Source: Tetradesmus obliquus (lineage: Eukaryota > Chlorophyta > Chlorophyceae > Sphaeropleales > Scenedesmaceae). Taken from it: DNA of 64,000 bases. A program made the position numbers and the translations under genes. Positions 62 to 63,640 of this stretch are shown here, one piece after another. How positions within the stretch are numbered: the first letter of the stretch is position 1; every line of letters begins with the position of its first letter. The notes under the pieces were generated by a model. That model searched no databases. It saw only the letters and a list, made by a program, of their open reading frames with translations, and had not been told where the DNA came from. Where the stretch lies: NCBI GenBank assembly GCA_030272155.1, contig CP126203.1:3534001-3598000 (forward strand), read 5' to 3'.

Positions 62-1164
62 GACGCTGCTGAGCCGCTTCCCTGAAGCGCTGGTGGTGCC
101 GGACCTGCGTGAGGACATCCGCTTCAAGGACTTTCCAGTGGTGGTGGGCTGGCCACACGCGCGCTTCTACGCTGCCGTGCCGCTGGTCAACAGCGACAAC
201 GTGCGCCTGGGCACGCTGTGAGTAGTGTGCAGCAGTTTGTGTTGCAGTGCTGAGGCAAGGGTTCTGAGTCTGCGTTGGGTGTGGCGTGGCTGCGTGTATG
301 CAGCTGTGCCGCTGGTCAACAGCGACAATGTGCGCCTGGGCACGCTGTGAGTACAGACAGATTAAAGTGACATACAGTGACATGGCTGGCGTGTTTGGTG
401 GTGGGCTGGCCACACGTGCGCTTCTACGCTGCCGTGCCGCTGGTCAACAGCGACAACGTGCGCCTGGGCACACTGTGAGTAGTGTGCAGCAGTTTGTGTT
501 GCAGTGCTGAGGCAAGGGTTCTGAGTTGGGTGTGGCGTGGCTGCGTGTATGCAGCTGTGCCGCTGGTCAACAGCGACAACGTGCGCCTGGGCACGCTGTG
601 AGTACAGACAGATTAAAGTGACATACAGTGACATGGCTGGCGTGTTTGGTGGTGGGCTGGCCACACGCGCGCTTCTACGCTGCTGTGCCGCTGGTCAACA
701 GCGACAACGTGCGCCTGGGCACATTGTGAGTAGTGCGCTGTCGTTGCGTTGCGTAGTGCTACGGCAGGCGGTTTTGGTGTGCGCTGGATTTGCAGTGGGT
801 GCTTCTACGCGGTTGTGCCGCTGGTGGACTGCGACAACGCGCGCCTTGTCACGCTGCGAGTACTTCTTGGTGCAGGCTGTCTCATGCAGATTTGTGCTTG
901 GTGCTGCGCTGTGGCAAGGTACGCATGTGGCGTTGTAAGTAGGTCGCCGTGATGGATCAAAACACTCTGCTTAAATCTATGGTTCTGCTCCTGCTGGCGC
1001 TGCTGCTGCTGCTGCTGCTGCTGCTGCAGCTGCACGCTGTACATTGATACCCCCCTCCTGCCCTCCTCACTATTGCTGCTGTTGCTTGTCCCACTACAGG
1101 TGCATCCTGGATGTTAAGCCGCACGACTTCAGCAGCGACAGCTGCGCGCTGCTGCTATCAACTC

Positions 1165-1205
<41 letters not shown>

Positions 1206-1272
1206 AGGTGCATCCTGGACGTGAAGCCACGCGACTTCAGCAGCGACAGCTGCACACTGCTGCTATCAACTC

Positions 1273-1310
<38 letters not shown>

Positions 1311-3523
1311 AGGTGCATCCTGGATTTGAAGCCGCGTGATTTCAGCAGCGACAGCTGCACACTGCTGGCGCAGCTGGCCAGCATGGTCATGCGCGAGGTG
1401 GAGCGCAAGCGCGCCATGAACGACGTGCTGTGCAACACCGCCGTGAGGCATGAAAGGTGAGCGCACATGCTGTGGTTGCTTTGAGCTGCGTGCTGGTGTG
1501 TGTGCCTGTGTTATGCGGATCGGCATTGCTCAACTGTATCCCTCAACTCCTTTGCTGCCGCTGCTGGTGCTGCCCCTGCTGCTGCTGCTGCCTTGTGTGC
1601 ACAGTGGTGACAGCATCACGCATGACCGCCAGGGGCTCATGCTGTGTGACATGGCCACAGCCAAGTGGGCCATCTACCTTGTCAACGAGGCATGGCACAG
1701 AACCACAGGCATCAGCCATGAAATGGCGGCTGGAGGGCACTTTTGGGACCTGTTTGAGCCACCAGCTCCGGCACAGGTGCGCTTTGCTTGCTTGATACTT
1801 CCCTGTGGCAAGATTTGATCACTGGTGGCGCGCATTGTGCGTTTGTTCCTCTTTGTGAGACAGATGTGATAGCAGAGGAGATGATTGGCCACCCTTGGAC
1901 TCTTGAGCACATATAAGCGCTATGCCGAACAGTACATTGTCAGTCACGCAGGTGCGCCTGACATGGTGTAAACACCACATCATAAATCGCAACGTAGACG
2001 GCTCATGTGCCGTGTGTCTCACTTTGCTGCTATTTGTGCTTGGCCGTCTGCTGCTGCAGGTGCAAGCCTACCGATTGGCAGTAGAGCAGCGGCGCAACTT
2101 CGAGCTGCGCATCCCTTGCAACGTCGGCGGCGGCGCAGGCGGCAGCAGCATCGGGCGCACCAACCCGCAGCTTGAGCCCCTGCTGATTCAGCAGGCCAGC
2201 AGCACAGCAGGCAGCGTGGCGGGTGGCAATGGGCTCAACCATAGCGGGGCGCTGCTGCAGCCGCAGCCTGTGCAGTCCACCTGGTCGGGTTCATTGCCAG
2301 GTGTGAACAGCTTTTCAGGCGCCTGTCATAGCCAAAGCATTCAGCAGCAGCAGCAGCAGCAGGATGCGAGCGGCGGCAGCGGCGGCAGCAGTACTGCGGC
2401 GGCAGCCGGAGCCGGCGCAGGCACGCCGTCAGCAGCCGGCGGCAAGGCGATTGGCTTTGTGTCTGCGTTTTCGGGGCACGAGGCGAGCCGGCGGCGCAGC
2501 ATTGGCGGCAGCATGCGGTATGTGCGCTTCCAGTTCCGCAGCATATCAAGTGCGGCATCCCACATGACGCCCGCTGTCTCGATCCCGCCTGCGCTGCTCA
2601 GCCAAGACACCCGCAGCAACTTTTACTGGGCGACAGTCGACATCCCTTCGGCCGCCAGCACGCACGGTGGTGATGAAGCAGGCAGCAGCTTCATCAGCGG
2701 CTCAAATCTGTACTTCACTGGCGGGCCTGGAGGGGTGTTTGGAGGCACTGATAATGCATGGGCTGGCAGTGTGCATGCCAGCGACAGTGCAGCACCCAGC
2801 ACGCATTCGAGCGGGCCTCACACTGCTACTGGCCCTGGCAGTGACTCGTCATCGATGCAGCAGCAGATGGGCGGCATGAAGACCACCTTTTCGCTGATGC
2901 CGGAGGACAATCCCTTCCAGGATATTACCATCGGCAGCTTGCTGGGCTGGGGCTCGTACGGGCGCGTGCACCGGGGTGAGCTTTGGCTGCTCATTAGCAA
3001 TTGTCTACAGCCGTCCTGGATTCAAAATGTCAGCACATTGTGTTGCGCTGCTGAGCTGCTGTTTTGGCCATATGCACTTGTTGCTTCGCGCTCTGAGGGA
3101 GTGAGGGGTGCTGGGCCGGCTGCGCGATCATTTGGATGTTCACGGTGGACAAGCAGACAAGGCAGTGGGTTGCCTCGCTGGGTCTGTATGTGTGCCACAA
3201 CCGCGTGTCGGCACTGTCTCAGTTCAGGTTTCCAGGGTGGCTTGGGGTGGTCGCGCTCAGTGTACTTCATGCTGCTGCTGCTGCTGCTGCTGCAGGCTAC
3301 TGGAATGGCAGCCTTGTGGCAGTGAAGGTCCTGGAGCAGGTGGCTGGGGACTTCAACCCGTGCACCAGCCTGAAGCACATGCTACCTCCTCTGACACGGC
3401 TGCTGCTGCTGCTGCTGCTGCACGCTACTGGAACGGCAGCCTGGTTGCTGTCAAGGTCCTAGAGCAGGTTGCCGGGGACGTCAACCCGCGCACTAGCCTG
3501 GAGCATTTGCCACCTTACCTGAC

Positions 3524-3558
<35 letters not shown>

Positions 3559-5210
3559 AGGCTACTGGAATGGCAGCCTTGTGGCTGTGAAAGTGCTGGA
3601 GCAGGTTGCCGGGGACTTCAACCCTCGCACCAGCCTGGAGCCACTGCTGCACCACCGGCTGAGCCACCCAAACATCGTGGCCATGTTCGACGTGTGCACG
3701 CAGGTGCGCTGTCTGTGCTTGCAGCAGTGAAGTTGCTCAGTTCGCAGTGCTTTCTCAGCACTGTACAGCACAGTGTTGCCAGTGCCGAGGGCTTTCCAAC
3801 GGTCGGGTTGTGTCTGCTATCGTTGATACAGCCGCATGTGTAGTCCAGAATGGATTTGCACCTTGCGGTTGGGCTGGTTCAGCTTTTGATTGTAACCTGC
3901 ATGTTTTCCGTTCCAAAACCGCCATCTTCCGACTTTGCTTGCCATCATTTCGTGTGGTTTCAGGAAGTGGACGTGTGCGAGGACAGCCGCCCGCTGCAGG
4001 AGGTGTGGATGGATGCTGCCTGCTGTCTTCTAACCCTATCCGACTGTCTGTTTCGTGTCATTGGCTGATGTTATGCCCCGCAGGAGGTGGACGTGTGCGA
4101 GGACGGCCGGCCCCTGCAGGAGGTGTGGATGGTGCTCGAGTTCTGCAACAGAGGCACGCTCTCCGACGCAATCCAGCGCGGCTGGCTGCTATCCGTGCGC
4201 GATGGCGCGCCACAGCCGGGGCAGCTGGATTTGCTTCGGGCCTTAGCCACAGCGCGCGAGGTTGCGAGAGCTATGGAGTACCTGCACAGCCAGAGCGTGT
4301 TACACGGCGATTTGAACGGGAATAACATCCTGCTGGCGGGCGCGGCGCTGGCGCCGGACGGCGTGGACCGACGGGGTTTTACTGCCAAGGTGGCGGACTT
4401 TGGCCTGAGCAGGATCATCACGCCAGGTGGGTACAGCTGTGCTGTGCTGTGTGATGTTACGCAGTTTGTGCAGATGCTCAGCTTGGTGGTCAGCTTGATT
4501 ATACCTGTCTGCGTCATCTCGTGGCGCCGCTGCGTCTGCGCTGCAAGTTTGTGTTCCAGCATGTGCAGGGTGCAGTGTTGGCGTCATGGCGCAGAACTTC
4601 TCATTGCTGTTTCCACGGCTACTCACACTGCTGTTCACGCCGCTTTTCATGCACTGCAGAGAACGAGAAGATCATCACACGCACGCACGGCACCATCACG
4701 CACATGGCACCCGAGGTCATCACAGAAGCCACACACAGCAAGGCAGCAGATGTGTACTCCTTTGGCGTCGTGCTTTTTGAGCTGCTGAGCGGCAGCAAGC
4801 CCTACCAAGGCATGCATTATGCTCAAATCGTATCCAGCATTACTAGCGGCAAGCTACTGCAGATGCTGCCGCAGCAGGCGCCGCACCTGCCGCCCGGTCT
4901 GCTAGAGCTGGTGGCTTCTTGCTTGGCCACCAAGCCAGTAGATCGGCCTACGTTTATTGAGGTGCATAGCAAGCTGCAGGAGCTGGAAACTGCAGTTGCT
5001 GCACAGCAGCAGCAGCAGCTGGCAGCAGAGCAGCAGCAGCTCGCGCCCGCTCAGCCGGCACAGCAGCAGCAGCAGCATGTGGGGTACGGCTGCTATGCTG
5101 CGAGTGCTGCAGCAGCAGCAGCGGCAGCAGCAGCAGCAGAGGCAGGTGGCGATGCATGCGGGTGCACGCAGCAGGTGATGAAGCAGGCAGCAGCTGCAGG
5201 CTTGCAATAG
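62..5210 (+). CDS. GAF/PAS-like Ser/Thr protein kinase (5' end outside window)
   Basis: Exons 62-217, 1313-1456, 1605-1776, 2060-2975, 3561-3703, 4084-4426 and 4660-5210 join in phase to about 807 residues ending at TAG. The left edge cuts the gene. The order is a GAF domain (RFYAAVPLVNSDNVRLGTL, then CILD), a PAS-like segment (AIYLVNEAWHRTTGISHEM), a low-complexity Ser/Ala/Gly linker, then a kinase domain. Visible kinase motifs are GWGSYGRVHRG (Gly-rich loop), VAVKVLEQ (ATP-anchoring Lys), HGDLNGNNILL (catalytic loop), DFGLSR, and MAPEV in place of APE. The catalytic loop has HGD where HRD is usual; the Asp is kept, so it is probably active. The Arg change suggests that activation-loop phosphorylation is not used in the standard way. 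GAF-linked kinases of this type are common in chlorophytes, and a signalling role is likely with unknown ligand. The C-terminus is Gln/Ala-rich. Four of the six introns visible contain truncated copies of neighbouring exons. Confidence 0.85.
257..860 (+). repeat. Donor-type tandem copies of the GAF exon end
   Basis: The last ~55 bp of the kinase GAF exon plus its donor recur with donor points after 346, 474, 597 and 725. A decayed copy ends near 855, where the donor has become GCGAGT. Copies 2/4 and 3/5 share flanks, so the array is a higher-order dimer of about 251-257 bp. All but the last keep GTGAGT. The copies lie inside the intron downstream of the intact exon. Confidence 0.9.
1100..1312 (+). 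repeat. Acceptor-type tandem copies of the kinase CILD exon head with (CTG)n
   Basis: Exon heads beginning GTGCATCCTGGA occur after AG at 1100, 1208 and 1313 (spacing 108 and 105 bp). The last opens the full exon. The second and third are directly preceded by a long CTG run whose final CAG is the acceptor. The 3-bp period difference equals one CTG unit. All three acceptors look usable, so choice of acceptor is uncertain. Confidence 0.9.
3296..3560 (+). repeat. Acceptor-type copies of the kinase GYWNGSLVAVK exon head
   Basis: Exon heads start at 3296, 3424 and 3561. Each follows a CTG run. The middle copy is preceded by AC rather than AG, so its acceptor is broken. Only the third continues through HPNIVAMFDVCTQ to a donor, so it is taken as the real exon. 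Each copy carries the codon for the ATP-binding Lys. Confidence 0.9.
3964..4083 (+). repeat. Acceptor-type copy of the kinase EVDVCED exon head
   Basis: Exon head EVDVCEDSRPLQEVWM starts after AG at 3964 and recurs as EVDVCEDGRPLQEVWM at 4084, a 120-bp unit. Only the second runs on into the kinase C-lobe. Confidence 0.9.
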
Positions 5211-8876: not shown

Positions 8877-11800
8877 ATGGTCAACATGCATCCTGCTGCT
8901 CTGCGCTGCCTGTTGCTGCTGTGCGTGTTCGAGCGCAGCACTCCTTGCCTTGACCGCAGCACAGCTCCAACCAGCAGCATGCAGGACTCCCAAGTCGTTG
9001 GCATGGGTTGGAGCAAGCAACAGCAACAGCCGCAGCAGCAGCACCTTCTACAGCCAGAGACCACATCAGCAGGACAGCGGCATCAGCAGCAGCGGCCACC
9101 ACCTCCGTGAAATCAATGCCTTAAAAGGCATGACAAGCGGCACCGCCATCAAGAGCAGCATGCAGCTACCCCTGGTTGTGCACGTAACCATCAGCAGCGG
9201 CAGCAGGAACCATCCTGCAAGCAGCAACAACAATGGGGCACGCAAGCACAGCTCCAGGCAGCTGCTGCTGCTGCAGGGTGAGATTGGTCAACGCTTCCTG
9301 CAAGCATCGCCACCTCAGCGCAGGCTGCTGCAGGAGAGCGACAACACCTATGGGGCATCTACAAACGCCAGAGTGATCAGCCCGCCTCTGCTGCCCTCCC
9401 ACACTGTGGTCCACAGCTTCACACCAGAAACAGCAGAAGCAATTGCGCACTCCGACAGCAGGTGAGGAATGAGACGTAGTATTGATGCTTTGAGCATGGT
9501 GCTGCAGTCGCTCTTGCAGAATTGCATCGCCTGTGCTGCAGCTGCTGCTGCAGCTTGCTGGGCATACCTGACGGCAGAAGAAGCAGCCTGTGTCCCATGC
9601 ATGTTTCCCACCCACGCGAAATAAACATTAAAATTTCAATGCCTAGCATCACATGCACAGCTCTTTACACGGTTGACATCCTCTCGTCGCCTTGCTGCTG
9701 ACTGTGCTGCTGTATCCTGCCTGTACTGCCTGTCCTTGCTGCTGCACTGCCCCTACCCTGCAGCAGCGTGCACCGCCTGGTTGCTGCCCCGCCCACTCAG
9801 CATTTTGCTAACTGTACTGCACTGTACTGCTTGTATTGCCGAATGTGCCGCCAACTGTACTGCCCTAGCAGCAGCATGCAACCCCTGGTCGCTCCCCTGT
9901 CCACTCAGCACGTTGCTTACTGTACTGCTCTGTACTGCTTGCATTGCAGAATGCTCCACAAACTGTACTACCTTTGCAGCGGCGTGCAACCCCTGGTCGC
10001 TCCCCTGTCCACTCAGCACGTTGCTTACTGTACTGCTCTGTACTGCTTGTATTGCGGAATGCCCCACACACTGTACTGCCTTAGCAGCAGCGTGCAACCC
10101 CTGGTCGCTCCCCTGTCCACTCAGCATGTTGCCAACTGTACTGCTTTGTACTACTTGTATCGACGAATGTACCGCCAACTGTACTGCCTTTGCAGCGGCG
10201 TGCACCGCATGGTCGCTCCTCCAAATCGGCGCAACTACGCGACAGTGGAAGCCGACCCCTCCACCAGCAACCCCTTCCGGCGCGAGTCCATTGTGCGCAC
10301 GCGTGCGCGCTCCTACATCGACAACGACCCCCACAACCGCAACGTGGACAATGTGAATCCCCTACGCCGCCGGACCTGGGACTACGCGAAAGCCCCAGAC
10401 AGCAGCACCGACGGCGACTTCAAATACGTTGCAATCACGCAAACGGAGCTGCCAGTAGTTGCGGTCGGAGGGATCTCGTTTGCGCAGACGTTTGAAGGCG
10501 CAACTGCGGTGGCCTCGTCTGATTCGATTGCGATGAGCAAGGGAGGCAAGCTGGGGACGCCTGCCAGCACGACAATTGCAGCGGGATCGGCAGTTACATG
10601 GGTGGGGGCACTGGTGGCGGCAAACCCGTACTCAAAGACATCTACTGCTGTGTCAACTGCGCAACGGCTCGGCTCCCTGGCGGCGTCTGGTGTTGCTGAC
10701 GGCGGAATCACGCTTGCGCAGGTGAGGCTCGTGTTACGTTGTTGTTACTATTGTTGTTATTACTGGTATCGGCTACTGTGTTACTGATGTCACTCTGCTG
10801 TGTGCTGTCACTCGTGCAGTCTGGCAATTCGCTTGCGCAGGTGAGGGCAGGTGTCACTTTTCTGTCACTGATGCTGCCGCGGATTCAGTGTGATGTCCAG
10901 GCATGGTGCTGATGCTGGTTAAAAGTGATGAGCTAGGCGAGGCGCAAGCTAGAGATGCACCCAAACGAAAGATGCATGCGACAAACGCGGCTTGCTCCTC
11001 TGCATAATCACTACGTAGACTGAGTCAGCGTCCACATGGCACACGCTGAGGCCCTTGGCTGGGATGAGCTAAGGAAGTCACAAGCTAGAGCTTCGTTCCT
11101 TGACATGCATGCAACAAGAGCTGTTTGATCGCTGGCAAATCTTTACGCAGGCTAAGTCAGCATCCAGCATGGCAGAGGCTGAAGCCGTTGACGGCCATGG
11201 GTGTCTGTCATTGATCTTATGTGCTGCAACGCTGCCTGCTGCGCTGCCACTGTGTCACACATTTGCATACTTCTCGCTGACTCGTGCAGGCTGAGTCAGC
11301 GTCCAGCATGGCACAAGCTGAGGCTTCGGGCTGGGATGCGCTGGGCCAGCCACATTCTGTATTTCCAGCCAACTACAATATGCCTGCAACAAACTCATGG
11401 TGTTTGCTCATCTGTCAACCATGCAGGCTGAGTCAGCGTCCAGCATGGCACAAGCTGAAGCCCTGGGCTGGGATGAGCTCGGGGACGCTGATGAGTGCCC
11501 ACAACAGCTGCTTGCTGCACTGCTGCCGCTGTGCCACTCGTCTGCAACCCTTTATGCAGGCTGAGTCAGCGTCCAGCATGGCACAGGCTGAAGCCCTCGG
11601 CTGGGATGAGCTCGGCGAGTCTGGTGAGTGTCCGCGCTGCTGGCACGACCCGCTGTCATATTCAAAGCAGAGCGGCGCTGCTGCGCCCATTCCAGCGGTG
11701 GGGCACCCGCAGCAGCGCATACCGCCAGGAATGGCCCCATATGGCTCTGGGATGCGCCTAGCAGGACCTCGAGACAACAGCAGCAGCAGCAGCAGCGTGA

Positions 11801-28024: not shown

Positions 28025-28039
28025 GCAGCAGCAGCAGCT

Positions 28040-36124: not shown

Positions 36125-36338
36125 GTGGTGGCATCCATGCCGTATCCGTCCAGCAGAGCATGCCGCATCGCGCAGTAGCCCAGCTTGGCGGCACCAGCAG
36201 CTTTGGCCAAACCTTGGCCCACTGACCTGCAAGCTGCTTTAAAGCACATATAAACACTTACCGTGGTTGCGTTCATGGCGTATCCGTCCAGCAGCGCGTG
36301 CCTTATAGCGCAGTAGCCCAGCTTGGCGGCACCAGCAG
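36125..36338 (-). repeat. Donor-type copies of the AAKLGYCAIRHALLDGYGMN exon end
   Basis: Two further copies lie downstream of the exon that ends at 36400: 36262-36338 and about 36125-36215. Both have AG at the front and a GTAAG/GTAGG donor at the back, so each could be recognised as an exon. The first is 77 nt and would shift the frame if included. Confidence 0.85.
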
Positions 36339-36399
36339 CTAACGTCAAACCTTGGCCCGCTGACCTGCCAGCTGCTTAGAAGCACATACAAACACTCAC

Positions 36400-47128: not shown

Positions 47129-48391
47129 ATGCACACGCAACTCTACCATTACATGCGGTCACACTCACCTGCGATGGTGTGCTCGCCTGGCGGGTCAGCC
47201 ATGGCAGCGCGCACCTCTGCTGCATTGGCCTCATTCCACTCCCTGGCCAGCTGGGCCTGAACATACAGCAAACAGCAACAAAGCAGCAGCCAGTGCAGCA
47301 GCAGCAGGTGGTGGTCAAGGTGTTGACGATTGCAATGCACTGCTGAAGCAGCTGCTGCATTGGCCTCATTCCACTCCCTGGCCAGCTGAGCCTGCAGCAC
47401 CGACAGTAGACAACAAACAAAGCAGCAGCAGCAGCAGCAGCAGCAGTTTGACATGGTGATCAGGGTGTTGATGATTGCAGTGCACTGCTGAAGCAGCTGC
47501 TGCATTGGCCTTTCCACTCCTTGGCCAGCTGCACCTGTCAGCAACGACAGCAGCAGCAAAACCAGTAACAGCACCAGCAGCAGGAGCAGGGGCAGCCAAC
47601 ACTGCAAACGGCTGGTGGCAGCAGCGTGGTAGCTTGGAGTGTACACCACCACCAGCAGCTGCAACTCAGAATCTTACCTAGCCAGGGCCCACTAGCAATA
47701 TGCGAGAACATCCAGCCAAGGTTCAACTAGCAGGTTCAACCTCTCAAGAAACCTGAACTACAAAAGCCAGCTCACCTTTGCTTTGTCAGGCCGCAGCTGC
47801 CGCAGCAGCCGCAGCATGGGGTGGCTCATCTCCTCATGCATGACTGCCAGCATGCCAGACACCAACTCCAGGTAGCGGCTGCGCCTGCAGGCAGGTAAAA
47901 CACAGTGCATGTGGTCAAAACTACGCCTCTGTACACCACTGCCATGGCACTGCTACAGCACTGCTGTGGTGCAAGGTATACGCACCAAACCCCAGCACCA
48001 TCTCCAGGTGGCGACTGCGCCTGCAGGCGGCTACGGCCGCACTCAACATGCTGCTAACCTTATGCCTGCTGGGGATTCATAAGCCTGATTCGTTTCCCCT
48101 TGCAGCAGGCAAAGGGTTGAGCTGTCAGCCTGTGCGTCAATGCATGCCTGGCCTGTTCAGCACTGCTACATATGACGCAACGCAAGCAGCATGCCCGACA
48201 CCAGCGCCAGCAGCACAACTGGTGCAGTTCTGTGTAAAGCAGGCGCCACTCACTTCTGTGAGACTGCGCCAACGTCCCTGCCATAAGCAACCTCCCCAAT
48301 CACATCCAGCGTGATGCGGTCCGTGATCTGGCACAAGTTGACTGAGGACCATCCAGCAGGCCCAGCAGCAGCAGCTGCACCTGCATTGCCA

Positions 48392-48428
<37 letters not shown>

Positions 48429-50583
48429 GTTGTGATGCAGCTGCTGCTGCCACCTGCTGCTCGATGATGCGCTCACACAAGCTGACAACAGTGGGAAGCA
48501 CCTGCAGCAGCAGCAGCAGCAGCAGCAGCGGCAACAGTTCATGAAGCCACATTTGACTTGAAGATAATGCCTGGTCGAGCCTGGTTGCACTGGTCCCAAT
48601 GCACCAGGCTGTAGCAATGGACGGCGTGCAGCACACTGTGCGCACCACATGCAAAGCACACCTCGTAGTCCCATAACACCCAAACTTGCAGTTTATCATA
48701 AAACCTGAACTTGCAGTCCATCATAACACCTGAACCCGAACCTGCACACCTGAACCAACAGGCCATCATAACACCTGAGCCCAGACACACAAAAAACCAA
48801 TTACAACCAACCGTAACGCACCCGCTTCAGGTTGGTGGAGGTGAAGCACTTCATCCACGCGCCCCGCACTGCCGCCCAGTAGCGGCCTTTTGTCCTGGCA
48901 TTGCTGCATGCCCATAGGTTGGCTTCCTTTCGGTGGCTAGCTTAAATCATGGCTGTAGCCTTGGCTGTAGCCATGTGCACAGCGCGCTACCACCTTCCAC
49001 ACACCACATGCCAGGATGCACAACTCGCAGCCTGTCACACCAACACCTCGCAAATGGACCTCGCAAATGGCTACACAGAACACACAAACACGCACCCGCT
49101 TCAGGTTGGTGGAAGTGAAGCACTTCATCCACGCGCCCCTCATTGCCGCCCAGTAGCGGCCATCAGAGCCGTTTGCACCCGCATCGCTGCTGCTGAGGAT
49201 GTTGGGGCACCTTGGGTGGCTGGCTGCCTCGATGGGAGCATATAGGCGGCCATCTTTCGGCACGTACGTCTTGCTGGCCTGCGCAGCAGAACAGGTCACA
49301 TTGTGTAGGTTGAGCGTCAGCGAGAATGATCTGCAGGTGGGTTGATTACGCGGAGAGTGTGAGAGAGTGTATGATGGTGGATTGACAGCATCACTGCTGC
49401 TGAGGATGTTGGGGCACCTTGGGTGGCTGGCCGCCTCAATGGGGGCATACAGCCGGCCATCTTTTGGAACATATGTCTTGCTGGCCTGCATAGCAGAGTA
49501 AGAGGAGCGCATAGGATGGGGTTAGTGAGAATGACCTGCAAGTGGGTTGATTACGCGGAGAGTGTGAGAGAGTGTATGATGGTGGATTGACAGCATCGCT
49601 GCTGCTGAGGATGTTGGGGCACCTTGGGTGGCTGGCTGCCTCAACGGGGGCATACAGCCGGCCGTCTTTTGGCACATGAGTCGTGCTGGCCTGTGCACCA
49701 GAGAGGCATGTGTTACTAGAGCTGTTAACTGAAGATGTGGCTGCATCAAGGAACGCTGTAATGCATACTGGTCTTGTGGCACTGGGTGCATTGCGCGTGC
49801 CGGAGCGCAGCACTGCTGCTGGCCTGCAGAATGCAAGTGCTTGCTGTTGCACAGCTCCTGTCTGCTGGCGCGACATGCACAGCAGCACACAGGTCTGACG
49901 CCCTTGGTTATGTTTCACTGACACCGAGAACAGCGGCGGCAGCAGCAGCAGCAGCAGCAGCACCCACCTGCAGCACTGCCCGCACCAGGGTAGGGTCTGT
50001 CACAATCACTGCCCACTTTGACAGCATGCGGATCCTGAACACCCCTCCATACTTGGCAGTCCTGCAGCGCAAGATAAACATACAGAAATGACTGAGGTTT
50101 CAGCACCTAGGATGCGTGCTGGCCAGAGACTGTTGCAGTGCAGGCATCTGCACTGTGACTGGAGCCACAAAAAACATCCAAGGTTGGCAGGGCCCCCATG
50201 CTGGGACTGGCATGCGCGGCAACTGTGCAGCATTTTCGAAGGTGAAATGAGGCTTGTACTGCTGCATGCTTACACTGCCAGAGTAGGTCGCTGCGACTGC
50301 TGTTGCATCGGCAAGTCGAAGCATGTTGCTGCTGAGCTGCAGGCAATGCTGCTGCTGCTGCTGCTGCTGCAGTCAGTGTTTACTCTCACCACTCCGCCAT
50401 CTTCAATGGTGCCTTGGTGGTCAAGAATTCGTTTGCGTGCCCCCAAAGCCAGCTCGAGGCAGGAGGAGCTGGCAGGGCCCTCAACACGCGCCACTGCTTC
50501 CAGGAACCCAGGACCATGCTGACGAGTGGCCAAGCCAACGCTGCCAGAAGCGTGTAAACAATAGTGGATAGCGTGAAAATCAT
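43450..50583 (-). CDS. Cytochrome P450 monooxygenase, complete
   Basis: Ten exons (50390-50583, 49968-50061, 49096-49278, 48254-48501, 47776-47884, 47169-47256, 45900-46072, 44917-45117, 44068-44475, 43450-43599) sum to 1848 nt, 615 residues. The N-terminal anchor IFTLSTIVYTLLAALAWPLV is followed by the hinge LPAPP. The I-helix has AGFETTSMALSW, the K-helix has REGLR (Glu 399, Arg 402), the PERW motif is in EAFRPERW, and the heme loop is FSIGPRDCAG with Cys ligand near residue 555. The end VEGGLPMLLRPRVP matches the usual beta-strand tail. All catalytic marks are present. It is probably an ER-bound monooxygenase needing a P450 reductase. Two Ala/Gly/Ser-rich insertions (about residues 185-205 and 465-540) make it longer than the usual ~500 residues. 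The substrate and CYP family cannot be told from sequence alone. Confidence 0.9.
43740..43945 (-). repeat. Compound tandem repeat in the last P450 intron
   Basis: CACACGCCACTGACCCACAY and CCCCCGACACACATTGCAGC alternate in units of about 20, 45 and 70 bp from 43755 to 43940. Read on minus, each unit contains GGGTGTGGGTCAGTGGCGTG. No coding role is visible. Confidence 0.85.
45118..45500 (-). repeat. Acceptor-type copies of the ELDSVGLLATPANP exon head
   Basis: Copies of ELDSVGLLATPANPQPAAFT lie near 45505-45395 and 45286-45165, before the full exon at 45117. Each has a GCAG-type acceptor, spaced about 170-220 bp. Confidence 0.9.
46073..46955 (-). repeat. Six truncated copies of the P450 I-helix exon head
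   Basis: The exon head GQLLQVLDPATGTPLTLDQL and the following KAELVIAA occur in full at 46072. Copies begin near 46222, 46375, 46525, 46665, 46793 and 46950. Units are about 125-155 bp. Each has GCAG before it and an Ala/Trp-rich decayed stretch after it; none reaches AGFETTS. A donor-type copy of the second half (AGFEITSMALSWTLGALACH) lies downstream at about 45690-45775. Confidence 0.9.
47257..47560 (-). repeat. Acceptor-type copies of the AQLAREWNEANAA exon head
   Basis: Copies near 47395-47345 and 47540-47490 precede the full exon at 47256. Each is followed by CAG-rich intron sequence on the plus strand (CTG on the sense strand). Confidence 0.85.
48830..49095 (-). repeat. Donor-type copy of the GRYWAAMRGAWMKCF exon end
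   Basis: GRYWAAVRGAWMKCFTSTNL plus a GTGCGT donor recurs at about 48830-48895, downstream of the intact exon ending at 49096. Spacing is about 265 bp. Confidence 0.85.
49279..49695 (-). repeat. Acceptor-type copies of the VPKDGRLYAP exon head
   Basis: Two upstream copies (about 49690-49590 and 49487-49385) of VPKDGRLYAPIEAASHPRCP and its LSSSDA end precede the full exon at 49278, about 205 bp apart. The intron part (GTATGATGGTGGATTGACAG on plus) is nearly identical between copies, so the duplication is recent. Confidence 0.9.
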
Positions 50584-52308: not shown

Positions 52309-54801
52309 TCACACGCTCAGCTGCTGCTCTGCCAGCGCTTGCACGCGCGCGTCGATCTGCAGCACCACAGGGTCGTCCCTTGCATACAGCCCACTGGCAA
52401 TCAGCTCCACCTTCTCTTTCAGCAGCCGCCGCACCTCCGCCAGCGGATCAGCAGCAGCAGCAGCACTGGGGCTCATCTGCTGCTGCTGCTGCGCCTGCTG
52501 CTGCTGCTGCTGCTGAGCAGGGCTCGGCGCCGGCTGCTGTTGCTGCTGCTGCTGTGGTGAGGTGTGCTGCTGGTTGCTGGCAGCAGCAGCAGCAGCTGCT
52601 GCTGCTGCCGATTTTGCTGATGATGGCCGTGGCTGGTTGAGGATTGCTGCCAGTGCAGCAACCTCTGCTAGGGCCGCATCAGCAGCAGATGCTGGCCCAC
52701 CTGCAGCAGCAGCAGCAGCCGCTGGGCTGCGTAGCTGTCGCTCACGGCTGGCCCTGCCGTGATGCCTGAAGTCTGTATCAATGTCATCACTGCTGCTGCT
52801 GTAGCCAGAGTCAGAGGCCTGCTGCTGCTGTTGCTGCTGCTGCTTCCAAGGCTCCTCTTCACTGCTGCTGCCGCTGGCATAGCCTTCAGCAACCCCTGCG
52901 TGCTGCTGCTGCTGCTGCTGGTGACGCTGCTGCCACCGCTGCTGCTGCAGCGCTGCGACTGCTGCTGCCTTCTTACTGCTGCTGCCATGTGCAGCAGCTG
53001 ACCGATCATGCTGCTGCCCCAGCTCATCTTCTCGCCGGTTATAACGGTTCTCTTTGCCCTCGTGATGGCGCCTCCTGTGCCGCTGCTGCTGCTGCTGCCG
53101 CTTGTGCTGCTGCCAGCTGCTGTCACTGTCGCTGCCATGCGAGGCGTGACTAGGGCTGGCTGCTGCCGCCGCCGCTGCTGCTACTGCTGATGCCAGTGCT
53201 GCTGCTTTGAGCTGTGCCAGCTGCTCCTTCACGTTAGACAGTTCAGCCTGCTGAGCAGCTGCCAAGCTGCAGACACAACAGAAGAGGCAGAAGAGGGGAA
53301 CAGACACCATAAAGCAATCACACTGTTATTCCTTGCTGTGATGGCTCCTGTGTGTAATGATGTGACTAAACCACACACAAAGCATCCTGTCTGACCGCCG
53401 CTGCATAATCAACAACTGCGCGTAGAATCAACGAATGCTTTGAGCTAGAGAGAGACCACCGCAAGTGAGGCAGGAAGGTTACGGCACACGGACATGCAAA
53501 CATGCCATCATGCAACATACCTGTTCTGCTCCTGCGCTGCTGCTGCCGCCTGCTGCTGCTCCATCTGCCGTAGCGCCTCCGCTTGCCGCTGCTGGTGCAG
53601 CGCAGCCATCTCGCGAGCCAGCTGCAGCACCTGCACAACATGCAACACACAACACGCAGTTGCACATATGCTTCATGCATCTTGAGCGCCCAGTAATGAT
53701 ATAGCAGCAGCTACACAACATGCAGCGCATCACACTAGCCTCGCTGCAGCGCCTCAGCAAACTGGCCTGCAAACAGTCGCAATGCGCAGCATGTGACAAG
53801 TCCTCTGCTGACATACAGTGCTGAGGCCAAGAAGCATGTGCCTGACCATGCTGCTGCACCAGCTGCTGGCATGCCTGCACTTGCATTCCCACCTGCTGCT
53901 TGTACTGCTTCTTGAGCTTTATGGCGCGAGCAGCGCGGTCCTCTGCGCGCGCTGCTGCCGCCTGCACCTCCTGCAGCTGCAGCTGTAGCTGGGCTTCTGG
54001 CGTGTCACGCTGAGCTGCACGGTACTCGCTGAACTGGGCCTGAGAGTTTATGTACATGTGATTGGGCAAGGCAGTGCAGCACGGTGTGCAGTCAATGTTC
54101 TTTGCAGCAGTTTTGCAGCACAAGCAACGCCCTGGGCTTGCATACCACACGTATGACGGCTACCCAAAAAGCGTGTCAACAAAGCGTCCGCCGCTACACG
54201 CCTTGCATGCAGGATGACTGCGACCTGCGCGCAATGCTCTTTCTGCATTGCTCCATGTCAGTGCCAGGCGTGTCTGCATGCAAGCTGCACCAGTAAGCTG
54301 CGCAGCAGCACATGCAGAAGCCTGGACTCACACACCTCCAGTGCTGCGGCACATGCCGCTGCAGCCAGCATACAAGCAAGCTGCACCAGCAAGCTGCACC
54401 AGAGCACAATTAGGATCATGTACAAGCGCACCTCCAGTGCAGCAGCACGTGCCTCTGCAGCCAGCAGCCGCGACTCTGCTGCATCCCGCTGCCGTGCCAC
54501 TGCTGCGGTGCGGTCGCGCTCCAGTGACAGCTGGTGCTCGCACTCCACCTGTTTGTAAGCGGCGCAGCGGCACAAGCAGTAATCAGGTAGCAGTTGCTGC
54601 CTTTCCATACACCTTGCAGCCAGCAGTTGCCCAGCAGGGTGCAGGTGTGCGCACATCCACACAAACAGCACTGAGCACGCACCTGCAGCCGCCGCACTGC
54701 TGCCTCTGCCTCACTCATGCGGCCTGCCTGCTGCCGCTCCAGGTCAGCGCGCCGCCTTGCCAGGTCAGCCTCAGCAGACAGCACCTCAGACTCGCGCTCC
54801 T

Positions 54802-54835: not shown

Positions 54836-57800
54836 CAGCAGCAGCAGCAGTGCGGCACATACACGGGTCAAGCTTGCGATGTGTGAGGCAAACCGTCTCG
54901 CCACATCAGCCTCAGCAGACAGCACCGTGGGCTCGCGCTCCTGCAGTAGCAGCAACAGCGTTCAGCACATGCCTGTGACAAAGAACACACCGCAGCAGCA
55001 GTGTATACGGCCGGCGGTTGCAGCACAGCGCGGGCTGAAGGATTCTGACGCTGCCACCTCTGCCATACCTGCTGATCAAACCAACCCAACCCATCGCTCG
55101 CCACCGCCCTAGCTTGCCTCAGGATGCACAGTGGCAGCTGTGCCACACATCTCGCATCTGGCTGTGCCGCACAGCTGGCGGCCAGGTCTCCCCTGCACCG
55201 CGGCCAGCAGCGCCTTGGTCTGCTGTCACCTGTGACCTGTAACATTTCGCATCTTGCTGCGCTTGATCTCACCTGCACTGCGGCCAGCAGTGCCTTAGTC
55301 TGCTGCTCCAGCCGGCCATACTCCGCCTTGAGCGCAGCTGCCTCAGCTTCACGTGCGCGCTCGCGCTTCCACCATTGCTGCTCGATGACGCTCATGCGCT
55401 GCTGCTCCAGCTCCTTTAGCTGGGCCCTGAACCGCGCCTCCTCCGCCTGCAAGCACCACCAGCAGCAGCAACTTTGATCAAACACGTAGCACCACCATCA
55501 CACACACAGCAACATGACGCGAGCATCTTCTGCCAGCAATCAAACAACAGGCAGGCAGCAGTGTGATCAGTGTGACATGGCAGCGTGGCGTGCAGTGCGG
55601 TTATCCTTGCTCGGGCTCCTTCAGCTCAACCCTGGACCGCGCCTCCTCGGCCTCCTAACGCCAACACATGAAAATCAGGCTCAGCAGTATCATTGCGCGT
55701 GCCCTTCTGCGCAATTGTTGCATGCACGATGATAGTGCTGCTGCAGTTGCAATGGGCTCAGTGCAGGTGCGCTACACTGAACAGCATGAATGAATGCCGT
55801 ACCTTCTTCCACACTTCCAGCTCCCAGGCCACAAGGTACTCCGGCATCTGCCTGAAGTCACCAGGAACAACACCCAGAACTGCACCAGGAAGTTCACCAT
55901 CAGCAGCCGAGTTCACACTGGGAACTCCAGCTGCTGCAACAGCAGCGCTATCATGCAACAGCTGAGCTTGAGGTGCAGCAGCACTCCCAGCAGCTGCTGC
56001 CATCCCCTGCTGCAGCTGCTGCTGCCGCAGCGCATACGGCCGCGCAGGCGCTGGCAGCACCCCCGCTGCTGCTGCTGCTCCTGCTGCCGGTGCATGCAGC
56101 TGCTGCTTGGGTGGTGTGCGGTTGCCAGGGCTCCGGAGAGGAGTGAGTGGGCCGCTGCTGCTGCTGCGCTGGTAGTGCCTGGCGCGTGCAGGCGACGCTG
56201 CTGCTGCTGCTGTTGCTGCTGCTGCACCTTTGTCTTCCAGTGACAGCACTACCCGCAGCAGGCCAACCTGCGGCACATAACGCATGCAAAGGTTGAGTTT
56301 TGAAAGCCAGCTAGCAGCACGGTAATAAGCTGCCTACATGCCATGCAGCCAGCTACACATACATGCACTGTAGCAGACAAGCTGTTCTCCTGAACTAATG
56401 CTGTCGCAGAGGGAGAGTGTGCATGTGCCACACCTGCACCTGCTCCTAGCGCTCCTCCCCGCCGTCTGCGCGCGCCATCATGGCATACACAGGTGCATAG
56501 CCATCAACCCAGCAGATGGCAACATATGCATGCACTACCGTTTATCAAGCTGTTGCCTTGAACTGCTGTGGAAGCTCAGAGAGAGAACGGCAAAACAGAT
56601 AGAGAGAGTGGCAGCCAAAGCAGAACCCACCTGCACCTGCTCCTGCCGCTCGTCGCCACCATCTGCGCGTGCCATCATGGCATACACAGGCGCATAGCCA
56701 TCCACCCAGCACTCCTGCAGCAGGGCTGATAGTGACACGCTCGCCACACCCAGCAGCAGGTCGGCACGCAACCTGCAAAACAGCACGGCAGGCAGCAGAC
56801 GGAACGTGTGAAGGACAGGAAGCCGCATTCATAGCAGTGCAAAGGTGCAGAATTGTTGTGAGGGCCTAAGCACATGGCTCCTTGCCTGTACAGAAATGCA
56901 CCGCCGACAGTACAGAAGCACTGCACGCCGTGCAGCAGCAGCAGCAGCAGCGACAGCAGCACATTTTTCTCTGTGGCATACTTCCAGCACCACGCACGGC
57001 TCCGCAGCCAGCAGCAAATCCCACACAGCCGCAGCCGTTGGGCAAGGGCACACCAAAACGAACGCACCATAAACTCCGAGCAACAGCAGCAGCAACTCAC
57101 TTCTCCCTGTGCCGCACTTCCAGCACCACGCGCGGCTCCGCAGCCAGCAGCCCTGCCAGGCCCATCACGCCAGCTGCAAAGTCCACGCAGCCGCAAGCGC
57201 TGAGCATGGAACCAACAAACATATTGCACTCCAGAAACAGCAGCAGCAGCAGCAGCAGCAGCGGCAGTAACAACTCACTTCTCTCTGTGCCAAACCTCCA
57301 GCACCACACGCGGCTCCGCAGCCAGCAGCCCCGCCAGGTTCATCACGCCAGCTGCAAAGTCCACGCAGCCGCAGCCGTTCGGCAGTGCTGCCTCGCTACC
57401 ACGCAGCACGTCGACTGCTGGCAGCGTGCGCAGCGGGGTGAGCTTTGGCGGCAGCTTGGCGCTGCAGGGGCCTGTCAGGAAGCCTGCAAGCGGCAGGGCA
57501 GTGAGAGAGAACAGCCAAGGGTGTTACAGAGAAAGACATAGACATGAGGACTTGGGCGGCAGCTTGGTGCTGCAGGGCCCTGTCAGGAAGCCTGCGGTTT
57601 GCAAGGGTGAGAAACAGAGACGCGATTGCGAGGCAGGCAGCAGTGCATTGCAAGTTAGGGCGGCCGCCTGCAGCGCCTGTTAGATATGGTGCAGACCAGG
57701 TGTCGAGGCAGCTGTATGCATGCTTGTTTCAGGCTTTGTAGCAGAGCTGCATTGATTTCAGTTGGCTGGCCTCACCAATCAGCTCCTGGGGCAGGAAGGC

Positions 57801-59675: not shown

Positions 59676-60469
59676 TGCAGGCTGCTGCTGCAAGCGTGGT
59701 CGGTGCAGTGCAGTAAGAAATCACAGCATGATGGAGGTGCGCGCTATGAAGTTGACAATTCTATGATTATTCGGGGTTTATCAACGGCAGCTGATTGGTA
59801 CAGCTAGGCGTTGAGTAAGCCCGGGGCACGCAGGATACAGCTGTGCATCCACAGCTGCTAGGGTGCTGCTGCTGCTTGAGCTGGCCAGCAATCACACCTC
59901 GAGGTTCGCCTGTCCGAAGCTTGTGGGTCTGAGTACATCAGCATTCAGATTTCTGCGCTATCTTTGCGCCTTCACCGATCATGTACAGTGCACTGTATCG
60001 TTGTTGTGCTGCAGCAGTAACACAGCTTCAACGGCAGAGCATGCTGAGCAAGCGACTTCATCAATCAAATTGCAAGATCGACATGTGTGGCGATACGAGC
60101 TGCTTCAGGAGGGTTTGTCCGTCAGCGTTGTCATGCCGTTGTCTGTCAGTGCGCATTTCAAATCAGCTGTCCATTACAGCATTGAGGTGTGAACCGTACT
60201 AAGTCAACGTACTCATAACGCCTTACTACGAAGAATCAAAGTTCTCGGAAGTCCGGCTGACGAGGGTTGCTTCTGCCTTGACCTGGTTGGTTGGCCTACC
60301 TACAGAATGAGGCCTTTCTCTGCACACACTTGACAGGCAATGATGCAGACAAGATTTTTGAGATGAGAATGCTTGTTGGACTTGGATTGCAGCAGTAGCC
60401 TAGAGAGAAAGCCAGGCCTCTGCCCAGGCCCCATCTGCTGTTGCTGTGTCAAACCGCAGCAGCATCAGC
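59676..60469. promoter_or_regulatory. Divergent promoter region between CEP120 and GBP genes
   Basis: The two genes start 794 bp apart on opposite strands. No convincing coding frame or named motif is visible. Confidence 0.45.
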
Positions 60470-63400
60470 ATGGAGAGCACCAGCAGCAACCAGCAAGGAG
60501 AAGCTCTCGAGCTGATTACGTATAATGTAGAAACTGGCAAGTTTCATGTCGGGCAGCGAGCATTGGCAATCCTGCGGGACATCAGGACGCCACTGTCTGT
60601 GGTGGCAGTATGCGGGAGGTGCGCAGAGCAACAGCCCCTGGATTTGTGCATGCTGCAATCGGCAAACAACTTTAGCACCATGAGTTGCATGACTTCGGTA
60701 CCAGTGAACACACCCAGCAACAGTAAGGAGAAAGCCCAGCCTGGAAACTCTCTCAGCAGCTGCACGGGCCGTCACGGCGCATGGGTTGCAGGACAGCAGC
60801 CCTTACAGCACACCTGGTAGCGATGCTTGTCACAACACTGACATGCACTCCATCAGCATCAACTTCCGTATGCTCCTGCAGGGCAAGGCAGGGCAAGTCC
60901 TTCATCCTCAACCAGCTCCTGCAAGTAACAGGTGGCTTCCAAATAGGCTCCACCACACGGCCCTGCACCAAGGGCCTGTGGATGTGGTCAACGCCTCAGA
61001 AGCGTGTGGATGAAGATGGCAAGGAGTACCACATCGTGCGTGGCTGACAGCAGCAGCTGCAGGCACTGTCAGCCGTTGAGGAGACAGTGCCGAACAGCAG
61101 GAGCAGTGATTTGCAAGCGTGCTATGTGTCCGCTGCAAAGCCGCCCAGTGCAGCCACCCGCAGCATGCGCCTAGACCACCAGGGGCTGTAGGGACAGCAC
61201 CACAGTACATGAATTATGTGTGTTACAGCTCCATATCAGCAGATAGCGCCGTGGTTTCAACTGGCCGTCATGCCAACAGCAGCTGTTTATTGCGCCGGCA
61301 TACGCTGAGGTGGTGTTGCGTGTGGCTGTTGTTTTGCAGGTGCTGCTGGATACGGAGGGCATTGATGCCTACGACCAGGTGGGGCTGAGCAGTGTTAGTC
61401 AGGCGTCCAGGCATGCCCGTGCACGAGTAACGACACAGCACCGAACAGCATGCAGCAGAAACAGAGCTACAGCCACATGGCCAGCTGCATCACGCCGCAC
61501 TGGCTGCCACATACACCTGCAGCAGCAACACAGAGAACAGGTGTTCATCAAAGATGGGGCTGCCTGCTTACGTATGCAGCAGTGGCATCACTTTATTTGA
61601 AGCAGCTGGAAGTGTGACTCCTGCACCTTTGAAGCAACACCGCATACTGCATGCTCGCTGAATTGTGTTTCATGTTGCTGACATGCGTCCTGCCACTGCT
61701 GCATGGGGCCTGCGGTCTGTTCTGCAGACAGCCCAGTACAGCACACAGATCTTTTCTCTGGCTGTGCTGCTGTCCAGCCTGTTTGTGTACAACCAGATGG
61801 GCGGCATCGACGAGGCAGCACTGGACAGGTGACACGCTCAGCACAGCTGCTGAAGCGTAGGCTGTATGGGCACATGCAGAAGAGCCATGGAAAATAGCCG
61901 CAATGGAGCTGTTGCAGGGTGCTCAGCTGCGGTCATCAGCTTGACTATGCAACTGCTGGCACCCATGCATTATTTAGAAAGCTTTCAGCTGGGCACTTGG
62001 CTCTGCACTTTTAAAGCGATTACAAGCCAATCAATGCGGTGGCTGCATTTAACGTTGTTTAGCAGAGCAAGTACCTTGTTGCTGCGCACTGATGACCTGC
62101 CTCCTTTAAGCAGCCGAGGGTACTTACTCCCTCCTCTCCTTGACCACCTGCTGCTGCTGCTGCTGCTGCTCTCTGTGCGTAGGCTGAGCCTGGTCACTGA
62201 GATGACCAAGCACATCAAAGTGCGCACCAACAGCAAAGGGGTGAGTAAAAAGCGCTGGCGACGCAGCTGCTGCGGTGTGGTTGCAACGTGCTTGCCGGTG
62301 ATCAATCTTGTCAGCAGACGCGCAGTGCAGGTGACTTGAAATGGATAATTGCACAGGCCACTCGCTTATAAAGTAACACACACGCGGTGAGATGGGATGT
62401 AACTTGTGACCAGGATGACATTGAGCGTTCATACCTGCTGCTGCTGCTGCCGCCGCCGCTGCTGCTGCTGCTGCTGCTGCTGCTCCGTCCAGACGGACCG
62501 CGAGCTGCGCGAGTTCACGCCCTCCTTCCTGTGGCTGCTGCGCGACTTCTACCTGCGCCTGGAGGACGAGCACGGCCGCACTGTGAGTGCTTCAGTGGTG
62601 CTGCTCTGTTTTCTTTCAGCTGCATTCTCAGTAGTTGTCTGTGCTCGATACGCTTACGACATCCTTGTTTTCAGCTATGTCTGCTGTGGTAACGCACGTG
62701 TGCATGCGTAATCTCCTGCGCAGGTGACGCCTTACAGCTACCTGCAGACCGCGCTGATGCTTGTGTGTGTAAATCTTTTTCGGGATCTGCTGGTTGTAAC
62801 ATGTCATGTCCTGCGTGATCTTCTGCGCAGGTGACGCCCAACGACTACCTGGAGACCGCGCTGATGCCTGTGGGCGGGCTGGGTGCTGCGGTGGAGGCCA
62901 AGAACGCCATCCGCACCAGCATCAAGGGCCTGTTCCCTGACAGGGACTGCGCCACGCTGGTGCGCCCCATGCACGACGAGCTGGTGAGTGGAGGTGGGAG
63001 TGATGGGGGAGGGGGGTGTTTGTCTGTCAGGCAAGGGAGCGTTGTTATTGATGTGGAAAGGATGGCGACCATGCGCGCCAAGCTGTTGAGGGGCTAGAGG
63101 GAGTCGCTTAGTAAGACATATGCATAACGGAGGGCGTGTTCCCTGACAGGGACTGCGCCAAGCTGGTGCGGCCCATGCACGACGAGCTGATGAGCGTGAT
63201 TGGGGTGGATTGCAGTTGTGCAGCAGGGAAGCCAAGGACGCTCTCCGCACCAGCATCGCTGCTCATCCTCACAGCAGCATGACTGCAGGCGACAGCACCC
63301 TCACATGACCTTGCTGGTACTGCAGCCTGCTTAACGTCGTGCGACCACAGGCAGTTGCACATGCATGGACTGTCTATTATCTAGCGCGTGATGCTGCATC

Positions 63401-63640
63401 ATTCTGTGTGGCTGCAGGCGTTGGTGACGCTGGATCACATCCAGCACAGTTGTTCACTGCCGGCGGCTGCTGCATCCTGCTGCACCATAACTTTCCCAGC
63501 AGCTCTGTTGACGCTAATTTTCGCATGATGCTGGATGGTTTGTGCAGGCGCTGGTGACGCTGGACCACATCCAGCCGGAGCAGTTGCGGCCGGAGTTCAG
63601 GGACGGCGTGGCCTCGCTGCTCAAGCTGATACTGCAGAAG
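60470..63640 (+). CDS. Guanylate-binding-protein-family GTPase (3' end outside window)
   Basis: Exons 60470-60618, 60882-61035, 61340-61378, 61728-61828, 62183-62240, 62493-62582, 62831-62983 and 63548-63640 join in phase for 279 codons and end at a donor, so the gene continues past the right edge. The large-GTPase domain has G1 GRARQGKS (residues 49-56), a switch region with STTRPCTKGLW, G3 DTEG (105-108) and LLRD (182-185) at the position of the GBP TLRD guanine-specificity motif. NDYLETALM, FPDRDCATLVRPMHDEL and LRPEFRDGVASL are family-typical. GBPs are dynamin-like GTPases; plant and algal members act in membrane or condensate processes, some in defence. ATG 60470 was chosen as the first in-frame start. 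Thr to Leu in TLRD is a mild deviation. Confidence 0.9.
62720..63460 (+). repeat. Junction copies around the GBP exons
   Basis: VTPYSYLQTALM (62725-62762) is an acceptor-type copy of the exon head VTPNDYLETALM. FPDRDCAKLVRPMHDEL (about 63138-63190) is a donor-type copy of the exon end. GDAGSHPAQ/ALVTLDHIQ-related sequence (63416-63455) is an acceptor-type copy of the last exon head. Confidence 0.85.

What the first reader, a model, noticed from the sequence alone, without database searches (positions are those of the whole stretch)
62..63640. Pervasive tandem duplication of exon-intron junctions in nearly every gene
At least 20 separate places in eight genes show the same thing: a unit of roughly 60-260 bp that crosses a splice junction is repeated in tandem. 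Acceptor-spanning units leave truncated exon heads upstream of the real exon; donor-spanning units leave truncated exon ends downstream. I found no case that breaks this polarity. Many copies keep AG or GT, so the introns are full of cryptic exons that could be spliced in. A single tandem duplication across a junction explains the polarity, but why junctions are hit so often is not explained. Tandem duplication is an established model for intron gain; here it seems to be an ongoing, genome-wide process.
Basis: partly seen in the sequence, partly recalled or inferred. Interest (0 to 1): 0.9.

Follow-up and report, generated by a model that had tools for sequence, protein, structure and literature searches.

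The report
Decaying exon-end copies inside introns
In this algal-looking genome many introns hold old, decaying, same-direction copies of the neighbouring exon's end with its splice site; they are far commoner at exon ends than chance gives, look untranslated, and appear to be left over from mostly past rather than ongoing duplication.

Summary
Self-comparison finds 45 local direct-repeat events in the window, 40 containing predicted exon, and 51 in 23 readable regions sampled elsewhere, 42 containing exon. Over all sequence held, 87 of 101 contain exon (41% expected under random placement) and 2 are intron-only (23% expected).

The interpretation needs correction. (1) Polarity is geometry. 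(2) Substitutions, indel rate, stops and splice sites mostly fit neutral decay, not use as exons. (3) It does not look ongoing: no exon-containing event has a full-length copy at 95% identity or more. (4) The classic intron-gain signature is nearly absent: 1 of 153 donor columns. (5) Of 65 junction copies, 25 repeat the intron part too; in 30 the match stops within 26 nt of the junction, far more than simulated decay gives.

Best reading: old local duplications, tolerated at exon ends, now fossils. Why exon ends dominate, and why intron parts are often missing, stays open.

The parts
139..863 (+). Donor-side array after exon 62-217: exon tail + GTGAGTA repeated, with two unrelated intron types alternating (period about 128 inside period 251)
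1074..1367 (+). Acceptor-side copies, offset 108, ahead of the exon ending at 1456; CTG tract before acceptors
3270..3648 (+). Acceptor-side copies, offset 128, predicted real exon 3561-3703 (kinase gene)
3961..4132 (+). Acceptor-side copy, offset 120; match starts at CAG; predicted real exon 4084-4426 (kinase)
9696..10219 (+). Acceptor-side array, offset 110, predicted exon starts at 10196
14436..15141 (-). Multi-copy exon-containing array, offset about 197, short-chain dehydrogenase gene
15722..15901 (-). Donor-side copy, offset 119, match ends at GTA
15985..16231 (-). Acceptor-side copy, offset 149
16557..16768 (-). Acceptor-side copy, offset 138
18070..18422 (-). Donor-side copies, offset 137
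21133..21432 (-). Donor-side copy, offset 184
25614..26283 (+). Donor-side copies, offset 203; intron parts of copies 1 and 3 agree better than those of 1 and 2 (LysM-domain gene)
26626..26825 (+). Donor-side copy, offset 131 (LysM-domain gene)
26909..27430 (+). Acceptor-side copy (offset 131) and a donor-side triple repeat (offset 118) on the same exon
27785..27966 (+). Acceptor-side copy, offset 130
27966..28545 (+). Donor-side array, offset 105, CAG-rich
36118..36471 (-). Donor-side full tandem duplication, offset 138, 2.5 copies, about 90% identity
36683..36905 (-). Donor-side copy, offset 133
36957..37225 (-). Acceptor-side exon-head copy, offset 205
37535..37732 (-). Donor-side copy, offset 113
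38101..38298 (-). Acceptor-side copy, offset 128, 93% identity over 70 bp
39342..39834 (-). Acceptor-side array, offset 99, with a 22-bp sub-repeat
40061..40195 (-). Donor-side copy, offset 94, 95% identity over 41 bp, intron flanks unrelated
40743..40902 (-). Acceptor-side copy, offset 106
44712..45003 (-). Donor-side copy, offset 202 (cytochrome P450 gene)
45005..45510 (-). Acceptor-side copies, offsets 168 and 217 (P450 gene)
45697..46004 (-). Donor-side copy, offset 222 (P450 gene)
45991..46993 (-). Acceptor-side array, offset 150 (P450 gene)
47217..47589 (-). Acceptor-side copies, offset 135 (P450 gene)
48816..49161 (-). Donor-side copy, offset 274, 96% identity over 72 bp (P450 gene)
49181..49703 (-). 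Acceptor-side copies, offset 207 (P450 gene)
54277..54466 (-). Donor-side copy, offset 96
55403..55666 (-). Acceptor-side copy, offset 205
56431..56711 (-). Donor-side copy, offset 197; copy carries a stop in the exon's frame, and the intron part matches only after a gap next to its donor
56932..57384 (-). Donor-side copies, offsets 136 and 178
57443..57618 (-). Acceptor-side copy, offset 108
62705..62872 (+). Acceptor-side copy, offset 107 (guanylate-binding-protein-like gene)
62925..63194 (+). Donor-side copy, offset 206, 94% identity over 64 bp, donor of the copy reads ATGAG

Best explanation
Small local duplications with offsets of about 90-250 bp, in direct orientation, arose mostly in the past by ordinary DNA repair or replication. 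Those that covered an exon end were harmless because splicing still joins the real donor and acceptor. The extra exon end then lies in the intron and decays about neutrally, while the real exon is held by selection. Over time intron sequence turns over, intron-only duplications become unrecognisable, and what remains visible are exon-end fossils. SHOWN: direct local copies, enrichment for exon, about neutral decay, scarcity of young exon-containing events. INFERRED: duplication by repair or replication, harmless splicing, and intron turnover as the eraser.
For: Copies are local and direct: 100 clusters at offsets 90-250 versus 18 in a three-times-wider control range of 500-980 at E 1e-6; 1 inverted row of 88. 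Decay: exon columns facing an intron copy differ in the window at .135/.109/.239 for codon positions 1/2/3, versus .244 for intron-intron columns; in the rest .147/.147/.244 versus .219. Indel rate .0086 per exon-to-copy column against .0187 per intron column; stops 14 against at most 22.2 expected. Splice dinucleotides intact in 54 of 65. Among events with copy identity of at least 90%, 4 of 9 contain exon, close to the 41% of random placement; among older or partial ones 83 of 92 do (Fisher p .0023). 25 of 65 copies repeat the intron part too, mostly in arrays.
Against: The exon bias is larger than detection allows. Simulated intron-only duplications are found in 54 of 60 at per-copy divergence .086 and 40 of 60 at .12, or in 40 of 40 at .09, 33 of 40 at .12 and 16 of 40 at .15 for 125-bp units with another indel setting; yet the 80-90% identity bins hold 17 exon-containing, 0 intron-only and 3 outside events. 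Matches that stop at the junction in 30 of 65 copies are not reproduced by simulated decay (2-10 of 150), even at exon identities of .95-.97. Exon-part indels are multiples of three in 14 of 57 against 29 of 237 in introns (Fisher p .035; 10 of the 14 in three arrays), which hints at some frame constraint. The young class has only 9 events. Gene models are computed, without transcripts.
Confidence: 0.5

Rival explanations
1. Junction-bounded copying: a process copies the exon end together with its splice consensus, but not the adjoining intron, into the intron nearby, for example by templated repair or from a pre-mRNA fragment.
For: In 30 of 65 copies the match stops within 26 nt of the junction. 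No significant intron match within 800 bp in 20 of those 30. Exon divergence of such copies is similar to that of full duplications, and identity is roughly flat across the copied block (14 ungapped copies).
Against: Direct orientation only. Offsets overlap those of full duplications, though about 200 bp is over-represented. Copies that reach the far exon end are not joined to the spliced neighbour exon in 85 of 88. No AG or GT at the exon-internal edge clearly beyond background. In 10 of the 30 an intron part is found after all, displaced or gapped.
Confidence: 0.22
2. Exon-anchored gene conversion: old duplications whose intron parts have diverged completely, while the exon part is repeatedly re-copied from the real exon.
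For: Would explain similarity that ends at the constrained region, scarcity of intron-only relics, and bias appearing with age.
Against: Identity does not fall toward the block edges. Blocks of about 40-90 bp are short for conversion (recalled). Ratios fit a simple clock in alignable parts.
Confidence: 0.13
3. Selected copies: the extra exon ends are kept because they serve as alternative exons or regulatory decoys.
For: 54 of 65 keep the splice dinucleotide, many with strong scores. Position 3 exceeds twice positions 1-2 in the window subset (2.78; 3.28 for copies whose match stops near the junction). Exon-part indels are multiples of three more often than in introns (14 of 57 versus 29 of 237).
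Against: Intact sites fit neutral decay at the measured divergence. 43 of 57 exon-part indels break frame, stops are near the neutral level. Periods divisible by three make up 32%. Outside the window the position ratio is 2.12.
Confidence: 0.06
4. Intron birth by duplication of an exonic AGGT segment (the Rogers model), ongoing across the genome.
For: The known model involves tandem duplication and splice sites (PMC3443670, passages read).
Against: Donor aligned to acceptor in 1 of 153 donor columns. Copies lie inside introns in another arrangement than the model gives. No exon-containing event at 95% or more.
Confidence: 0.04
5. Assembly artefact.
For: None seen; raw reads were not available.
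Against: Copies mostly differ by several to about 30%, with decay patterns that track codon position, and lie on at least seven of the 17 contigs.
Confidence: 0.01

Closest known systems
Junction-spanning tandem duplication in a potato RdRp gene (PMC4974935; part of the abstract and passages read)
   Same: A tandem duplicate of an upstream intron-exon structure that brought acceptor, polypyrimidine tract and exon sequence along; an 83-bp duplication inside an intron is also reported there.
   Different: There it made a new intron and exon. Here the copies look like decaying relics within existing introns, and many lack the intron part.
[quoted passage not shown] passages read)
   Same: Local direct duplication touching splice sites.
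   Different: The expected donor-to-acceptor alignment is almost absent (1 of 153).
Tandem exon duplication and mutually exclusive exons (PMC9013439; search listing only)
   Same: Exon sequence repeated in tandem next to the original.
   Different: Here the copies studied are truncated and show little or no coding constraint.
Small tandem duplications from fill-in at staggered breaks (PMC8355091; passages read)
   Same: A known route to short direct duplications that does not need repeats or homology.
   Different: The passages speak of insertions under 100 bp and give no preference for exon ends; break ends were not tested here.

Membership tests
[quoted passage not shown]
   1 of 153 donor columns
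[quoted passage not shown]
   No related eukaryotic genome at hand; protein search could not be made
Junction-spanning tandem duplication (potato type) | Unit holds both intron and exon sequence, repeated head to tail | tested here: inconclusive
   Met by 25 of 65 copies, intermediate 10, not met next to the junction by 30, of which 10 show a displaced or gapped intron match
Tandem or mutually exclusive exon duplication | Whole exon copies under coding constraint | tested here: not met
   Substitution pattern, indel rate and stops near neutral; a weak excess of 3n indels is the only counter-sign
Introner or transposable element | Inserted sequence belongs to a dispersed family | tested here: not met
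   30 spacer sequences against the sequence held gave only one own-array hit and short hits up to 49 bp; two whole-genome DNA queries hit elsewhere only within exon stretches
Processed retrocopy | Copy joined to the spliced neighbouring exon | tested here: not met
   Of 88 copies scored that reach the far exon end, 85 had at most 16 of 20 matches to the neighbour exon; 3 had 17 or more and were not followed up
Minisatellite array | Three or more head-to-tail copies | tested here: inconclusive
   Span of at least 2.7 periods: full-unit class 17 of 25, intermediate 3 of 10, junction-stopping class 9 of 30

The most novel reading that the evidence does not exclude
The genome carries, or once carried, a process that copies exon ends with their splice consensus into the adjacent intron without the adjoining intron sequence, guided by splicing or by exon-specific chromatin; introns would then grow partly from fossils of their own borders.
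Probability: 0.2. Interest if true: 0.85.

Novelty: new variant of a known kind. Interest (0 to 1): 0.58.

Why it matters
Single cases of duplications across exon borders are known, but here such events, arrays included, span 11.2% of a readable 230-kb sample and 27.6% of the window. Such a genome is a natural laboratory for how splicing ignores duplicated splice sites, for how introns lengthen, and for whether exon borders are mutational hotspots. It also warns annotators: gene finders will call some of these relics exons, as mine did.

Tried and rejected
Fully self-trained gene finder: collapsed into repeat noise; replaced by a seeded model. 'Copies are translated': disfavoured by indels, stops and codon positions, with a weak excess of 3n indels against that. 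'Spacer is a complete mini-intron, copies are mini-exons': not supported, AG within 3 nt of the edge in 16 of 35 versus 11-16 in control windows, GT in 11 of 28 versus 5-10. 'Selection destroys the extra splice sites': not supported, 54 of 65 intact. 'Copies come from paralogous genes': two whole-genome queries show no paralog sharing the introns. 'Spliced mRNA as source': not supported. 'Intrinsic unit size of 100-150 bp': dropped, because exon detection length plus a minimum spacer of about 40 nt can give the peak, and by-eye reading shows copies below threshold. 'Intron-only duplications merely undetected': a more sensitive search adds few (8 intron-only and 11 outside against 101 with exon at E 0.1). 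Species name: not established; a green alga is my guess from gene content and composition.

One search drops it and retrains the gene finder; event counts, random-placement expectation, age table and density now come (first run).
Full report
WHAT WAS LOOKED AT. The window is positions 3534001-3598000 of contig C13 in a 104.66-Mb, 17-contig genome. No annotation, transcripts or relatives were available. Recognisable genes include a protein kinase, a short-chain dehydrogenase, a LysM-domain protein, a cytochrome P450 and a guanylate-binding-protein-like GTPase (5 of the 8 predicted proteins given matched a family). GC is 56%, and acceptors often follow CTG-rich sequence. For comparison I fetched 24 ten-kb regions at preset positions on contigs 1, 2, 5, 7, 9 and 11 and 8 short kinase loci. 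One of the 24 reads N throughout and was dropped, leaving 23 regions, 230 kb, and 321,531 readable bases in all.

IS IT THERE. Yes. Self-comparison gives 85 nearby direct repeats in the window and one inverted match. Counted as loci there are 46 in the window and 51 in the sample, against 0 in 3-mer-shuffled sequence. At the same threshold, offsets of 90-250 bp hold 100 clusters while a control range of 500-980 bp, three times wider, holds 18.

IS IT MORE THAN CHANCE AT EXON ENDS. I trained a two-strand gene finder on this sequence (donor CAG|GTGAG, acceptor CTGCAG|G) and retrained it without the unreadable region. It labelled at least 91% of bases as exon in 7 of 8 Pfam hit stretches and 24-36% in one, but six of the eight, the poor one included, were also training seeds; the two window hits that were not gave .96 and 1.00. 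By copy pairs in the first run, 60 of 120 span a single junction against 26.6 expected, and 11 lie within introns against 47.3. By events after retraining, 87 of 101 contain exon, 2 are intron-only and 12 lie outside; random placement gives 41%, 23% and 37% (binomial p 5e-21; first run 88, 3 and 10). The window (40 of 45) and the sample (42 of 51) agree. Simulated intron-only duplications are found in 54 of 60 at 8.6% divergence per copy and 40 of 60 at 12% (33 of 40 at 12% for 125-bp units), and a more sensitive search does not reveal a hidden crowd of them. Detection bias therefore contributes but does not suffice.

POLARITY. A single duplication across an acceptor must leave an exon head upstream, and across a donor an exon tail downstream.

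WHAT HAPPENS TO THE COPIES. They decay about neutrally. Where one copy is exon and the other is not, window differences at codon positions 1, 2 and 3 are .135.109 and .239, with .244 in intron-intron columns; elsewhere .147.147.244 and .219. This is what a frozen protein and a free copy give: half rate at constrained positions, full rate at position 3. Pairs with both copies labelled exon show .097/.073/.188 in the window and .138/.170/.220 elsewhere. Indels per column are .0086 against .0187 in introns, and stops are 14 against an upper expectation of 22.2. Splice dinucleotides survive in 54 of 65 copies. Results on the other side: 14 of 57 exon-part indels are multiples of three against 29 of 237 in introns (Fisher p .035; 10 of the 14 lie in three arrays), and a junction-anchored subset of the window shows a higher position-3 ratio (2.78, and 3.28 for copies whose match stops near the junction; 2.12 and 2.23 elsewhere). 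I take these as composition, repeats or noise, but some constraint on some copies is not excluded; I raised the selected-copies rival from 0.05 to 0.06 for the indel result.

AGE. By best full-length identity, exon-containing events number 0 at 95-100%, 4 at 90-95%, 7 at 85-90%, 10 at 80-85%, 27 below 80% and 39 with only partial matches. Intron-only plus outside events number 3, 2, 0, 3, 4 and 2. So 'ongoing' is not supported. Of the 9 youngest, 4 contain exon, as chance predicts; of the other 92, 83 do (Fisher p .0023). The bias thus appears with age, though on few young events.

TWO KINDS OF COPY. Of 65 junction copies with a well-scored, truncated exon, 25 repeat the intron part as well (17 of them in arrays of at least 2.7 periods), 10 are intermediate, and in 30 the match stops within 26 nt of the junction. 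Of these 30, 10 show a displaced or gapped intron match within 800 bp and 20 do not. Simulated decay gives 2-10 of 150 such cases. Exon divergence is similar in both kinds, identity is roughly flat across the copied block (14 ungapped copies), and some pairs at .95-.97 exon identity have unrelated introns. The first array in the window shows it plainly: two intron types alternate after near-identical exon tails. This is the strangest part, and ordinary ageing does not explain it.

HOW IT MOST LIKELY WORKS. I commit, at 0.5, to old local duplication tolerated by splicing, followed by neutral decay and intron turnover that leaves exon ends as the visible relics. Short duplications are known to arise in repair of staggered breaks (PMC8355091, passages read; they speak of insertions under 100 bp). 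Tolerance implies that the spliceosome keeps choosing the real sites; pairing across the short exon would do so, which is inference from general knowledge. Rivals are junction-bounded copying (0.22) and exon-anchored gene conversion (0.13).

COMPARISON WITH WHAT IS KNOWN. The nearest published case I found is a potato gene in which a duplicated intron-exon segment made a new intron (PMC4974935, part of the abstract and passages). The standard model of intron birth by duplicated AGGT segments (PMC3443670, PMC2891723, passages) predicts donor-to-acceptor alignment, found in 1 of 153 donor columns. Eight searches of open-access papers listed 8 to 20 papers each out of up to thousands of matches; none of those listed is, by title and start of abstract, a report of such a genome-wide pattern in an alga. 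Subscription papers were not covered.

LIMITS. Exons are predicted. The sequence held is 0.3% of the genome, and the sample leans on contigs 1 and 2. Copy-level results rest on the first gene model and were not rerun. Arrays contribute several copies to copy-level counts, so event-level figures are the safer ones. Cut-offs on exon length, score, identity and offset removed rows before each count; they are in the scripts cited.

Noticed in passing
window 5428-6307: Non-exonic array with period 134-149 bp downstream of the kinase gene.
   Followed up: no
window 34823-34938: 58-bp tandem duplication at 96.6% identity outside exons, one of the youngest events.
   Followed up: partly
window 12132-12848: CAG-rich array of mixed periods (33, 72-75, 102, 147).
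   Followed up: no
window 31728-31778 and 63950-64000: A dispersed 51-bp direct repeat at 92% identity, 32 kb apart.
   Followed up: no
window 51997-52112: Imperfect palindrome of about 116 bp, the only inverted self-match at the threshold used.
   Followed up: no
window 55190-55225 and 54890-54940 (minus strand): Further exon-end copies seen by eye that are not in the list, the first with GG where the donor GT would be; the census is a lower bound.
   Followed up: no
contigs 8, 12 and 14, P450 hits: Neighbouring P450 exon hits, picked by eye, that cover the same profile stretch a few hundred bases apart; possibly the same kind of exon copy on other chromosomes.
   Followed up: no
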